Origin: Propionibacteriaceae bacterium
GTDB taxonomy: Bacteria > Actinomycetota > Actinomycetes > Propionibacteriales > Propionibacteriaceae
Direction: 5' to 3'
DNA: 64,000 nucleotides
Assembly: GCA_009780915.1 (NCBI GenBank)
Contig: WQZD01000007.1
Coordinates: forward strand, 1 to 64,000
A model generated the notes under the pieces. The model was given only the letters and a program-made list of their open reading frames with translations. It ran no database searches and had not been told where the DNA came from. Numbering within the stretch: the first letter of the stretch is position 1; the number at the start of each line of letters is the position of its first letter. A program made the translations under genes and the position numbers. Positions 21,019 through 28,091 of this stretch are shown here, in pieces.

Positions 21019-21990
21019 ATGCTGGCAGCCGTTGACCTCGGGCTCATCTACGCCCTGATGGCCCTGGGCGTCTTCCTGACCTTCCGCATCCTCAACTTCG
21101 CCGACCTCACCGTCGACGGCTCCCTGGTCACCGGGGCCGCCGTGTCCGCGTCGGCCATCCTGGCGGGGTGGTCCCCCCTGGCGAGCACCGCCCTCGGCTT
21201 CGTCGCCGGATGCGCGGCCGGCGCGATCACGGGCGTGCTCAACACCTTCGGCAAGGTCAACCCCCTCTTGGCGGGCATCTTGACCCAGATCTCTTTGTAC
21301 TCCATCAACCTGCGGATCATGGGGAAAGCCAACCTGAGCTTGTTGCGCGCCCCCACGTTGCTGTCCGGTATGCACGACGCCCAGTGGTTCGCCACCTGGA
21401 AATCCATCGCCGTGTTCGCCGTCATGGTGGCGATCTTCGGGGTGGCCCTCACCTGGTTCCTGACCACCAACCTCGGACTCGGCATCCAAGCGGCGGGCAA
21501 CAACGTCCAGATGGCCCGCGCGCAGGGGGTCCACACCTCCGGCATGGTCATCCTGGGACTGGCCCTGTCCAACGGGTTGGTGGCGGTGTCGGGCGCCTTG
21601 CTGGCGCAGTACCAGGGCTTCGCGGACATCTCCATGGGCATCGGAACCATCGTCGTGGGGCTGGCCTCTGTGATCATCGGGCAGGCGATCTTCGGGTCCC
21701 GTCCCATCTGGCGGGCGGTGCTCGCCGTGGTCGCGGGATCCGTGATCTACCGTGTCGTGATCCAACTGGCGCTGGGGCTCAACATCGGGCTCCAGCCCAC
21801 GGACATGAAGATCATCTCGGCCGTGCTCGTGATCGCGGCGCTGCTCCTGCCCAAACTGGCCGTCTTCCAGCAGATGGCACGCAATCGCCGGGAGAAGGAA
21901 ATGGCCAAACAAGTGCTGGCTGCCGACATGGCCGCCGTGGAGAAAACGGTGCATGGGGACGCCTCCCCCGCCACAGGAGGGATCGAATGA
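21019..21990 (+). CDS. trpY: ABC transporter permease, tryptophan type
   Basis: This 323-residue permease starts LAAVDLGLIYALMALGVFLT followed by FRILNFADLTVDGS, the family hallmark of the TrpXYZ-type permeases (COG4120). About nine membrane segments are visible. The start at 21019 matches the family N-terminus; GTG 20980 is an alternative. The ATP-binding gene overlaps its stop (ATGA) and the binding-protein gene lies convergently just downstream. Substrate is inferred from the Trp-codon attenuator upstream of that binding-protein gene. Confidence 0.85.
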   Translation: MLAAVDLGLIYALMALGVFLTFRILNFADLTVDGSLVTGAAVSASAILAGWSPLASTALGFVAGCAAGAITGVLNTFGKVNPLLAGILTQISLYSINLRIMGKANLSLLRAPTLLSGMHDAQWFATWKSIAVFAVMVAIFGVALTWFLTTNLGLGIQAAGNNVQMARAQGVHTSGMVILGLALSNGLVAVSGALLAQYQGFADISMGIGTIVVGLASVIIGQAIFGSRPIWRAVLAVVAGSVIYRVVIQLALGLNIGLQPTDMKIISAVLVIAALLLPKLAVFQQMARNRREKEMAKQVLAADMAAVEKTVHGDASPATGGIE

Positions 21991-22835
21991 CGACCACCAC
22001 TGCCACGTCGACGCCGGGCGCTCCCTCCGGTGGGGCCGCGCCGAAGCTTGAGTTGCGCCACGTCACGAAGACCTTCTTCCCGTACTCAGTCAACGAGCGG
22101 ACGGCCCTGGACGACGTGTCCTTGACGATGGCCGACGGTGATTTCGTCACCGTGATCGGCTCGAACGGCGCCGGGAAGTCCACCTTGCTGTCCGTCGTCG
22201 CCGGCGTCTTCCGTCCCGAGCGCGGCCAGGTGTTCATCGACGGGCGCGACGTGACCCATCTGCCGGAGCACTCCATGGCTCGCCTGGTGGGCAGGGTCTT
22301 CCAGGACCCCATGGCCGGGACGGCGCCCGACCTGACCATCGAGGAGAACATGGCCCTGGCCTGGCACCGAGGCAGGCGACGCGGCTTGGGACGCGGGGTG
22401 ACCGCGGCGAAACGGGCCCGCTTCCGCGACGAGTTGGCCGTGATGGGCTTGGGCTTGGAGAACAGGCTGACCACCCAGGTCGGGTACCTGTCAGGCGGTC
22501 AGCGCCAAGCCCTGTCCCTGATCATGGCCGTGTTCTCACGCCCGTCGATCCTTCTCTTGGACGAGCACACCGCCGCCCTGGACCCCGCACGCGCCGAGTT
22601 GATCACGCGGATCACGGAGCAAGAGGTCGCCTCCCACCGGCTGACCACCCTCATGGTGACGCACAACATGGACCAGGCCCTGCGTCTGGGTAACCGCCTG
22701 ATCCTCATGCACGAGGGCACGATCCACCTGGAGCTGACCGGTCAAGAGAAGCAGACGACGACGGTCGACGGCCTTCTCGACCAGTTCGCTCGACGAACTG
22801 GCGATCTGGCCGCCGACCGTACACTGCTGGGCTGA
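21987..22835 (+). CDS. trpZ: ABC transporter ATP-binding protein, tryptophan type
   Basis: This 282-residue ATPase has Walker A IGSNGAGKS (about residues 63-71), the signature YLSGGQRQALSL (about 167-178), Walker B SILLLDEHTAALD (about 187-199) and the H-loop MVTHN. The Glu-His in LDEHTAALD is typical of this subfamily. It energises the permease encoded just upstream, overlapping by 4 bases. A short Thr/Pro-rich N-terminal extension precedes the domain. Confidence 0.88.
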   Translation: MTTTTATSTPGAPSGGAAPKLELRHVTKTFFPYSVNERTALDDVSLTMADGDFVTVIGSNGAGKSTLLSVVAGVFRPERGQVFIDGRDVTHLPEHSMARLVGRVFQDPMAGTAPDLTIEENMALAWHRGRRRGLGRGVTAAKRARFRDELAVMGLGLENRLTTQVGYLSGGQRQALSLIMAVFSRPSILLLDEHTAALDPARAELITRITEQEVASHRLTTLMVTHNMDQALRLGNRLILMHEGTIHLELTGQEKQTTTVDGLLDQFARRTGDLAADRTLLG

Positions 22836-22861: not shown

Positions 22862-23869
22862 TCAGCTGGGGACGACCACCGTGCCCGGACGAGAGCTGAC
22901 CGAATCCGGGATCGTCACGCCCTGGAGGGCCGCGGCGGAGGGATTAATCGTGAGGACGAGGGAGTCTGTCAGATCGGCCATTTTGACCACGGGCAGGGTC
23001 GCGGGGCTGGCGCCCTTGAGGACCTTGTCAGCCAGAGTCGCCGCCTGGCAGCCCATGTCGTGCTGGTTGATGGCGTACGACGCCGTGGCGCCACGGGTGA
23101 CCGAGTCGGGGTCGGCGGCGATGACAGGTACCTGCTGCTGCTCGGCGACCTGGACTAGGGCTTCGACGGCGGACACCACTGTGTTGTCATTGCCGACGTA
23201 GAACGCGTCCACGCCTTTCAGGGACGCCGCCGCCTGTGCCACTTCGGCGGAGGTGGTCACCGCGGCCGCTTTGAGGTCGATGCCGAGCTTCGCCGCGGCG
23301 TCCTTGGCCAGGTTCATCTGCACTTCGGCGTTCACCTCGGACGAGGCGTAGACGACGCCGATGGTCTTCACATCGGGCTTGATGTCCTTGATCAACTGGA
23401 TCTGCGCGTCGATGGGCGGGTAGTCGGAGGTGCCGGTGAGGTTCCCGCCGGGCGCCTCGAAGGAGTTCACCAGTCCGGCGGAGACTGGGTCCGTCACACC
23501 GGCGAAGATGATGGAGCGGTCGGGGATGGCCTGGGCCATCGCTTGGGCCACAGGCGTGGTGATCGCCACGACGAGGTCGAGCTTGGCGGCCTTGAAGTTG
23601 TTGGCGATGCTCGTCAGGGCGGCCTGATCGCCTTGGGGGTTCTGCTCGTCGTACGCCACATCGGTGTAGCCGAGGGTCCCCATGCAATCCTCGAAGCCCG
23701 CTCGGATGGCGTCCAGGGAGGGGTGGGACACGATCTGGGCGATGCCGATGTGCAAGGTGGTGCTGCTCGGGTTCGTTCCCGGGGTGCCGGTCGAGCACGA
23801 TGCCAGCGAGGCGAGGACGATCATCGAGGCGCCTGCCGCCGCGATCCGTGTCATCCGTGAGTGGGTCAT
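22862..23869 (-). CDS. trpX: Substrate-binding lipoprotein, probably for tryptophan
   Basis: This 335-residue lipoprotein has lipobox LASC (about residues 22-25) and the ABC_sub_bind fold of TrpX proteins: HIGIAQIVSHPSLDAIRAGF near residue 41, IFAGVTDPVSAGLV near 122 and IGVVYASSEVNAEVQ near 169. It should deliver the ligand to the permease encoded convergently. It is transcribed alone behind a leader peptide with two adjacent Trp codons and an intrinsic terminator. This regulation is the best evidence for the substrate. Confidence 0.85.
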   Translation of the reverse strand: MTHSRMTRIAAAGASMIVLASLASCSTGTPGTNPSSTTLHIGIAQIVSHPSLDAIRAGFEDCMGTLGYTDVAYDEQNPQGDQAALTSIANNFKAAKLDLVVAITTPVAQAMAQAIPDRSIIFAGVTDPVSAGLVNSFEAPGGNLTGTSDYPPIDAQIQLIKDIKPDVKTIGVVYASSEVNAEVQMNLAKDAAAKLGIDLKAAAVTTSAEVAQAAASLKGVDAFYVGNDNTVVSAVEALVQVAEQQQVPVIAADPDSVTRGATASYAINQHDMGCQAATLADKVLKGASPATLPVVKMADLTDSLVLTINPSAAALQGVTIPDSVSSRPGTVVVPS

Positions 23870-23907: not shown

Positions 23908-23994
23908 AAAAAAACCGCCTGCGTCAGGCGGTGGTTGTGGGCACAACTGTCGGACCGCCTGTCAGGCGAGCCACCAGCTGTACATGTTCTGCAT
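23908..23994 (-). promoter_or_regulatory. Tryptophan-codon ribosome-mediated attenuator
   Basis: The leader contains a 10-codon peptide with tandem TGG codons. A perfect terminator stem, CCGCCTG with CAGGCGG (23915-23931), follows and ends in seven U. The segment CAGGCGGT just after the leader stop can pair instead with ACCGCCTG of the terminator, giving a classic antiterminator. A -10-like TACAGT lies 6 bases before the leader ATG, so the leader mRNA may be leaderless. Confidence 0.8.
23962..23994 (-). CDS. Trp leader peptide
   Basis: This 10-codon open frame reads MQNMYSWWLA and stops within the first strand of the attenuator. The two consecutive Trp codons are improbable by chance. Ribosome stalling there when charged tRNA-Trp is scarce would free the antiterminator and allow expression of the binding protein. 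Confidence 0.78.
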   Translation of the reverse strand: MQNMYSWWLA

Positions 23995-24138
23995 GTGGCA
24001 ACTGTACCCGTACCATGCCCCCTGTCTTCAACTCGCGTCCACGATATGAGACTATCCGTGTTCCATCGTGTGATGGACGAGCGGCGCCACGGGATCCCGA
24101 GGGGGCGCCTGCGGGAGGGACGACTCAGCGCCCAGGTC

Positions 24139-25233
24139 TCACACGCGGGGACGATGGATCGCGCCGGCGACCATCACGAGGGCGAGGTCGGCCAGGGCGG
24201 ACACGTCTTTTCGGGGGTCCTCCCTGGCGATCACGATGTCCGCGGGGGCGCCGTCCTCCAGATCGCCCGCCCCGAGCCACTGCCTCGCACGCCACGACGC
24301 GGCGCCGAGGGCGAACATGGGCCCGCCCACGCGGGACAACGCCGTGATCTCGCCCAGCACCGCCCCATGAGGACGGATCCCCCCGGCGTCGCTTCCGCAA
24401 TATATGTTCACACCGGCGTCCAGGGCGGCAGCGTACACCCGGTCGCGACAGGCGTACAGGTCGCGCATGTGGGCCGCGTACGTGGGGAACTTGTCCTGCG
24501 CCTGGTCGGCCAGATCGGGGAAGATCTCCAGATTGTCCAGTGTCGGGACGAGCGCCACGTCGTTCGCGGCCATGATCGCCATGGTCTCCTCGTCCAGCCC
24601 GCAGCCGTGCTCGACGCAGTCGATACCCGCCCTGACCAGGTGGTGGACCGACTCTTCCCCGAAGCAGTGCGCCGTGACGCGAGCCCCCTCGTCGTGGGCC
24701 GCCCGGATGGCCTCGGCCATGACCTCCTCGGGCCAGGACGGGGCCAGGTCGCCGACCGCGCGGTCGATCCAGTCCCCCACGATTTTCACCCACCCGTCTC
24801 CGGCACGAGCCTGACGGCGCACCTCGGCGACGAGATCCTCGGGTTCGACCTCCACGGCGTAGTCGCGCAGGTACCGGCGGGTACGGGCCACATGCCGACC
24901 CGCGCGGATGATCCGGGGCATGTCGGCGCGGGCGTCCAACCAATGGGTGTCGATGGGGGAACCGGCGTCACGGATGAGGGTGACCCCGGCGTCCAGGTCG
25001 GTGAGGGCCTGTCGCTCCGCGGTCTGCGCGTCGACACCGCCCTGCGCGGACAGACCCACATGGCAGTGCGCGTCCACGAGACCCGGGAGGATCCAGCCCG
25101 CCGACGCGATGGTGGTGGCGCCCTCCACTTTCGTGTGGGTCACCGTCGAGCCCTGGACCCACAGGTCCAGTTCCTCGCCGGTCTGGCACATCACGCCATG
25201 GATGTGCCACGCGGGGCTCGTGGGGGTGCTCAT
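24139..25233 (-). CDS. Amidohydrolase-family metal-dependent hydrolase
   Basis: This 364-residue enzyme shows the amidohydrolase beta/alpha-barrel metal sites: ILPGLVDAHCHVGL (HxH near residue 57), the lysine in GWVKIVGDW (about 148), TAHCFGEESVHHLV (about 188) and the catalytic Asp in IYCGSDAGG (about 280). Relatives include imidazolonepropionase-like and prolidase-like hydrolases; the substrate is unknown. The ATG overlaps the ffh stop (ATGA), an unusual partner for ffh. Confidence 0.8.
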   Translation of the reverse strand: MSTPTSPAWHIHGVMCQTGEELDLWVQGSTVTHTKVEGATTIASAGWILPGLVDAHCHVGLSAQGGVDAQTAERQALTDLDAGVTLIRDAGSPIDTHWLDARADMPRIIRAGRHVARTRRYLRDYAVEVEPEDLVAEVRRQARAGDGWVKIVGDWIDRAVGDLAPSWPEEVMAEAIRAAHDEGARVTAHCFGEESVHHLVRAGIDCVEHGCGLDEETMAIMAANDVALVPTLDNLEIFPDLADQAQDKFPTYAAHMRDLYACRDRVYAAALDAGVNIYCGSDAGGIRPHGAVLGEITALSRVGGPMFALGAASWRARQWLGAGDLEDGAPADIVIAREDPRKDVSALADLALVMVAGAIHRPRV

Positions 25234-27797: not shown

Positions 27798-27811
27798 TGA
27801 CGATAACCAAT

Positions 27812-27946
27812 TCCGGGGTCGGTGCAAGTCCGAACCGGCGGTGATGGGACCCTGTCAAGGGGCCCGAGTCCGCGAACCTCGATGTGAGAGCGCCGAGGCC
27901 GATCTGGTGAGAATCCAGAACCGACAGTCATAGTCTGGATGGGAGG
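27812..27946 (+). ncRNA. FMN riboswitch (RFN element)
   Basis: The conserved RFN blocks are all present: GGGGTCGGTGCAAGTCCGAA, then CCGGCGGTGATGGG, AGTCCGCGA, and TGGTGAGAATCCAGAACCGA followed by CAGTCATAGTCTGGATGGGAG. Binding of flavin mononucleotide closes the aptamer. A downstream CTCCTCCCCCC tract can pair with the GGGAGG edge, so control may act on termination or on the ribosome site. It precedes ribXY. Confidence 0.92.
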
Positions 27947-28091
27947 AATGGGTTAGGCCGATGTCCGCCATGCCTGTGCGGGTGTCGGTGCTTGCGCGTC
28001 TCCTCCCCCCCCCGCCCCGTGATCGGTAGGACCAGGTTCCCGTGAAGCAAGGAATCTAAAGTCTTTCCTATCGGGCTTCGCAGGAGGGATG

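What the first reader, a model, noticed from the sequence alone, without database searches (positions are those of the whole stretch)
23908..23994. Trp leader peptide and attenuator before an ABC binding-protein gene
MQNMYSWWLA with tandem Trp codons precedes a terminator stem and seven U, with an alternative 8-bp antiterminator pairing. It regulates only the binding lipoprotein, while permease and ATPase genes lie convergently on the other strand, so ligand capture would be tuned separately from translocation.
Basis: partly seen in the sequence, partly recalled or inferred. Interest (0 to 1): 0.6.

Follow-up and report, generated by a model that had tools for sequence, protein, structure and literature searches.

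The report
Tryptophan attenuator before transporter lipoprotein gene
A tiny leader peptide with two tryptophan codons and a switchable transcription terminator sits in front of a gene for a probable tryptophan-catching lipoprotein, so the cell would make the catcher mainly when it runs short of tryptophan.

Summary
Minus strand 23994-23908 encodes MQNMYSWWLA*, overlapping a four-segment attenuator and ending in a terminator with seven U. It is conserved: two congeneric genomes carry it before the orthologous gene (MHTTRTWWPA*, MQNRRNWWPAS*). A covariance model of the three leaders recovers the same leader type across Actinomycetes. For 37 such leaders not before this gene, 27 downstream proteins were scanned; all 27 match tryptophan families (trpB, trpB-like, trpD, trpS, trpE-like). 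In 22 of 25 family/order leaders a TANNNT -10 box ends 6-7 nt before the start codon, so the mRNA is probably leaderless. The target is a TrpX-like binding lipoprotein. All three leader-bearing copies have Gln at the position reported to admit tryptophan; all 32 other distinct homologues with a letter there have Tyr (PMC6816091). Permease and ATPase genes are convergent here and in G001. None of 18 other TrpX-family genes of the class sample has a tandem-Trp leader. Best reading: classical ribosome-mediated Trp attenuation, recruited to the binding protein. The mechanism is known; target and split control look new. No expression data exist.

The parts
24001..24006 (-). Likely -10 box TACAGT, ending 6 nt before the leader AUG; implies a leaderless transcript
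   Evidence: TANNNT ends 6-7 nt before the start in 22 of 25 related leaders; sequence
23962..23994 (-). Leader ORF MQNMYSWWLA* with tandem Trp codons at 23976-23971
23965..23969 (-). Segment 1 (leader nt 26-30), pairs with segment 2
   Evidence: 15 of 15 cells paired in three orthologues
23954..23961 (-). Segment 2 (nt 34-41), antiterminator 5' arm
   Evidence: 23 of 24 cells paired with segment 3
23925..23932 (-). Segment 3 (nt 63-70), shared by antiterminator and terminator
23908..23921 (-). Segment 4 (nt 74-81) and the U7 tract (nt 81-87): terminator 3' arm and tail
   Evidence: 24 of 24 cells paired
22862..23869 (-). TrpX-like ABC substrate-binding lipoprotein (PF04392), regulated gene; Gln269 at the specificity position
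21019..21990 (+). ABC permease (BPD_transp_2), convergent with the lipoprotein gene
21987..22835 (+). ABC ATPase, start overlapping the permease stop, ends 26 nt from the lipoprotein stop

Best explanation
This is a classical ribosome-mediated transcription attenuator that responds to charged tRNA-Trp. Transcription probably starts at or next to the AUG of the leader ORF (leaderless mRNA). When Trp-tRNA is scarce the ribosome stalls at the tandem UGG codons and covers segment 1; segment 2 is free and pairs with segment 3 before segment 4 is made, so RNA polymerase reads on into the lipoprotein gene. When Trp is ample the ribosome reaches the stop and covers segment 2, and segments 3 and 4 form the terminator. 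Without translation segments 1 and 2 pair and the terminator also forms. The product is most likely a tryptophan-binding lipoprotein feeding the neighbouring permease/ATPase, so uptake capacity rises in Trp shortage. Shown by sequence and comparison: leader, segments, conservation, association of the leader type with Trp genes, specificity residue. Inferred: stalling, read-through, ligand, transcription start, partnership with the convergent transporter genes.
For: Leader, stop region, segments 1-4 and U7 conserved in 3 of 3 orthologous loci while the codons between start and Trp codons vary. The model of these three finds the same leader type before Trp genes: 27 of 27 downstream proteins scanned. 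-10 box at 6-7 nt from the start in 22 of 25 and 14 of 15 leaders. Gln at the Trp-specificity position in 3 of 3 leader-bearing proteins against Tyr in 32 of 32 others (structural basis from PMC6816091). Co-transcriptional folds: nt 34-70 give the antiterminator in all three; with nt 1-43 masked the terminator forms.
Against: No expression data. With nt 1-35 masked and the whole leader present the terminator is the minimum-energy fold in all three, so read-through depends on timing. Only three orthologues, and no two-sided compensatory change. G001 loses one of the eight antiterminator pairs. The lipoprotein scores below the TrpX equivalog cut-off (265.5 against 390) and has Asp253 where the Trp binder SP1069 has Ala268 and the Tyr binder CD0873 has Glu263.
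Confidence: 0.9

Rival explanations
1. An ordinary terminator of the upstream amidohydrolase gene plus a chance ORF with two Trp codons.
For: The upstream amidohydrolase gene lies on the same strand and ends at 24139, about 200 nt before the terminator.
Against: Trp codons, three-way pairing and -10 spacing are conserved in orthologues and shared with leaders of trp genes.
Confidence: 0.02
2. A Trp attenuator as described, but the lipoprotein catches another ligand (tyrosine, phenylalanine or an indole compound) whose uptake is useful in Trp shortage.
For: The family binds Tyr, Phe or Trp (PMC6816091); Asp253 lies at the position where CD0873 uses Glu263 for the Tyr hydroxyl; the TrpX cut-off is not reached.
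Against: Gln269 matches the Trp binder and is absent from the 32 other distinct homologues with a letter there; leaders of this type otherwise precede only Trp genes among those scanned.
Confidence: 0.12
3. The terminated leaderless RNA or the leader peptide also acts in trans, as reported for rnTrpL and peTrpL of Sinorhizobium meliloti, for example on the permease/ATPase or trp mRNA.
For: The leader is probably leaderless and ends in a strong terminator like rnTrpL (PMC7298713).
Against: Complementarity of the leader RNA to permease, ATPase and trpE starts is no better than shuffles in the window, and likewise for permease and ATPase in G001.
Confidence: 0.04

Closest known systems
Classical Trp attenuators of trp operons and trpS in Corynebacterium and Streptomyces
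   Same: Leader peptide with two or three Trp codons, GC-rich terminator with U tract, complementary triple of segments (PMC1262725, part 1 of 3 read)
   Different: Those precede biosynthetic genes or trpS; this one precedes an ABC binding-lipoprotein gene. The segment motif here is GCC/GGC with GGCGG and CCGCC.
T-box control of trpXYZ in Streptococcus suis
   Same: Trp-shortage control, by transcription termination, of a related Trp-binding lipoprotein (PMC9382623, passages read)
   Different: T-box RNA reads uncharged tRNA directly and controls the whole trpXYZ transcript; here a translated leader is used and only the lipoprotein gene lies downstream.
Leaderless leader peptides of Streptomyces lividans, for example metL before metN
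   Same: Leaderless leader ORFs before amino-acid genes, one of them an import system (PMC8079986, passages read)
   Different: metL lacks a clear intrinsic terminator; here terminator and antiterminator are complete.
trpL of Sinorhizobium meliloti
   Same: Leaderless Trp leader ORF starting at the RNA 5' end, with attenuation (PMC7298713, passages read)
   Different: Controls trpE(G) and has trans roles; no trans target found here.

Membership tests
Ribosome-mediated (classical) Trp attenuator | Short leader ORF with tandem Trp codons just before the pairing segments | tested here: met
   3 of 3 orthologous loci
Ribosome-mediated (classical) Trp attenuator | Mutually exclusive antiterminator and intrinsic terminator with U tract | tested here: met
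Ribosome-mediated (classical) Trp attenuator | Segment 1 pairing with segment 2 (default to termination without translation) | tested here: met
Ribosome-mediated (classical) Trp attenuator | Read-through responds to Trp-tRNA charging through the Trp codons | not testable with these tools
   needs reporter experiments
T-box riboswitch (Trp) | Match to a T-box model of Rfam | tested here: not met
   Only an FMN riboswitch reaches its gathering score in the window; no match up to E = 1 in the three leader loci
TrpX (NCBIfam NF041285 equivalog) | Score above the curated cut-off of 390 bits | tested here: not met
   265.5 bits; no gene of the 394-genome class sample reached it either
TrpX-like Trp-binding proteins | Gln at the position of SP1069 Gln284 that admits Trp | tested here: met
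   Gln269
TrpX-like Trp-binding proteins | Ala at the position of SP1069 Ala268 | tested here: not met
   Asp253 by the alignment
TrpX-like Trp-binding proteins | Binds tryptophan | not testable with these tools
   needs a binding assay

The most novel reading that the evidence does not exclude
The binding protein alone is the starvation-tuned part of a split ABC importer. In this clade the permease/ATPase unit lies inverted to the binding-protein gene, the lipoprotein acquired Trp specificity (Tyr to Gln) together with a leaderless Trp attenuator of the trp-gene type, and Trp uptake is set by the amount of captor over a steadily made translocator.
Probability: 0.4. Interest if true: 0.55.

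Novelty: new member of a known kind. Interest (0 to 1): 0.42.

Why it matters
Two independent sequence signals, the codons of the leader and a pocket residue of the protein it controls, name the same amino acid, which gives a likely ligand to a protein of uncertain specificity. The same leader type marks Trp genes across Actinomycetes (trpE-like, trpD, trpB, trpB-like, trpS) and here extends to uptake. If only the captor is regulated, it is a clean case for asking which part limits an ABC importer.

Tried and rejected
Trans action of the leader RNA on permease, ATPase or trpE mRNA: complementarity no better than shuffles. A leader before the own trp operon: none seen upstream of trpE, where a tRNA-Trp gene lies on the other strand. 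A tandem-Trp leader before the paralogous gene of this genome or the other TrpX-family genes of the class sample: 0 of 18 within about 600-700 nt. For the paralogues of other genus members I rely (those shown in gene orientation) and on the absence of model matches there; one search prints L001, L004, L006, L008, L014 and L017 in the wrong orientation and L016 has no upstream sequence. A second leader of this type in G000, such as before the permease: none. T-box or other known riboswitch: none.

Rows left out of counts: 6 of 31 inspected loci (L061-L063, L076-L078) have no credible Trp leader, 12 of 27 class loci likewise. Weaker matches (E about 0.001-0.05) beyond its 20 fetched loci were mostly not inspected. 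In one search, L089 and L090 gave no alignment and L018 has no letter at the position; L025/L026 duplicate L002/L003 and L099 duplicates L017. For 10 of the 37 other leaders the downstream protein was not scanned; by eye they look like the trpE-like set. L047 is a 119-residue contig-edge fragment below its cut-off, and the three trpE-like proteins are below theirs. The filter requires a -10 box, so its list is not used for the -10 count; one search is.

Full report
What is there. A third pairing, nt 26-30 (within the last two sense codons) with nt 36-40, completes the usual 1:2 / 2:3 / 3:4 set. The start codon of the lipoprotein gene lies 125 nt after the leader start.

Is it more than chance. 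Two genomes of the same genus carry the orthologous lipoprotein (71-74% identity) with the same leader: MHTTRTWWPA* in G001 and MQNRRNWWPAS* in G014. Their records in the named collection are MAGs called Propionibacteriaceae bacterium isolate TD116_bin43 and Ast373_bin3. Leader codons between the start and the Trp codons vary between the three; the Trp codons, segments and T7 do not, apart from one antiterminator pair. Terminator cells are paired 24 of 24, antiterminator cells 23 of 24, segment 1:2 cells 15 of 15; partners slid by 1-3 columns give at most 60%. No two-sided compensatory change is seen; three sequences could hardly show one.

The leader belongs to a wider type. A covariance model of the three was run over 198 family genomes, 391 order genomes and 394 class genomes; these sets overlap. 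Of 31 loci inspected from the first two searches, 25 have a tandem-Trp leader and 6 do not. Of 27 class loci, 15 have one. Three of these 40 leaders precede the lipoprotein. Of the other 37, 27 downstream proteins were scanned with NCBIfam: 9 trpB, 2 TrpB-like, 7 trpD, 6 trpS and 3 anthranilate-synthase-like below their cut-offs, so 27 of 27 are tryptophan genes. Most genus members show a similar distance to the gene start and similar sequence after the U tract, which fits duplication of a whole trp-gene leader in front of the lipoprotein gene; that origin is inferred.

Probably leaderless. In 22 of 25 family/order leaders a TANNNT hexamer ends 6 or 7 nt before a possible start codon of the leader; among all 2067 ATG/GTG codons on that strand of the same loci 31 have this, leaders included. 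In the class set it is 14 of 15. A -10 box there puts +1 at or next to the start codon. Leaderless leader ORFs are on record in Streptomyces lividans (PMC8079986, passages) and for trpL of Sinorhizobium meliloti (PMC7298713, passages).

The target. The lipoprotein is PF04392; its only NCBIfam match is TrpX, at 265.5 bits against a cut-off of 390. Its close solved relatives are 6hni, 3lft and 3lkv. PMC6816091 (passages) reports that these have Tyr, Trp and Phe bound, and that Gln284 of SP1069 (3lft) contacts the indole where the other two have Tyr. In the HMMER alignment that Gln falls on Gln269 here (the residue numbers were matched by counting back from the named residues). Across homologues Gln stands in 3 of 3 distinct leader-bearing proteins and Tyr in 32 of 32 other distinct proteins with a letter there. 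The leader-bearing proteins form one clade (100/99, with duplicate rows). So the codons of the leader and the pocket of the protein point to the same amino acid. A caveat is Asp253, at the position of Ala268 in SP1069 and Glu263 in CD0873.

The layout. Permease and ATPase are on + and the lipoprotein on -, tail to tail with 26 nt between. G001 has the same layout and neighbours (permease 76%, ATPase 80%); G014 ends at a contig edge. In Zhihengliuella, Kocuria and Neobacillus, and in the four paralogous clusters of this genus that I read (L021-L024, one of them from this genome), the three genes run in one direction. None of 18 other TrpX-family genes from the class sample has a tandem-Trp ORF upstream. 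So the leader and the convergent layout are so far confined to one clade.

Physiology. The own genome has a trp operon whose trpE has no such leader, so here the attenuator governs uptake and not synthesis. G001 has no match for trpA, the trpE domain or indole-glycerol-phosphate synthase, yet keeps a trpB behind a leader of this type: by gene content a Trp auxotroph that may live on uptake and indole salvage, both behind Trp attenuators. It is a draft genome of 98% estimated completeness, so absence is not proof.

How it works. Stalling at the tandem UGG covers segment 1; segment 2 then meets segment 3 before segment 4 exists. Folding nt 34-70 alone gives the antiterminator in all three (-15.1, -11.8, -16.4 kcal/mol), while masking nt 1-43, as a ribosome at the stop would, gives the terminator. 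With nt 1-35 masked and the whole leader present the terminator also wins, so read-through has to be a matter of timing. How far a stalled ribosome reaches is recalled knowledge, not a call.

Known or new. Trp attenuators in Actinobacteria are known (PMC1262725, part 1 of 3 read), and Trp-shortage control of trpX by a T-box is known (PMC9382623, passages). My searches (listings) showed no paper on a leader-peptide attenuator before a trpX-type gene. A 2015 paper by Korolev and colleagues on Trp attenuators in Actinobacteria is cited in PMC4833913 (passages) and was not seen. I therefore file this as a new member of a known kind with a new target.

Noticed in passing
window 27805-27954 (+), with genes from 28089 (+): An FMN riboswitch (RF00050, 93.8 bits) precedes an ABC permease ORF and a following lipoprotein-like ORF: a candidate flavin importer.
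   Followed up: no
L021 (G000:C30): A paralogous binding protein-permease-ATPase cluster, all on one strand, with Asp and Tyr at the two specificity positions and no Trp leader: probably for another aromatic compound.
   Followed up: partly
L080 / L065 (G001:C15): A trpB behind a Trp leader in a genome without matches for trpA, the trpE domain or IGPS: possible indole salvage.
   Followed up: partly
window about 23908-23885 (-) and the same place in related leaders: A CAGGC-containing stretch after the U tract recurs in several leaders of the genus; it could pair with the terminator or segment 1 sequence in read-through RNA.
   Followed up: no
L043 1506-1579 (-): A tRNA-Trp gene lies just upstream of trpE in the own genome, on the other strand.
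   Followed up: no
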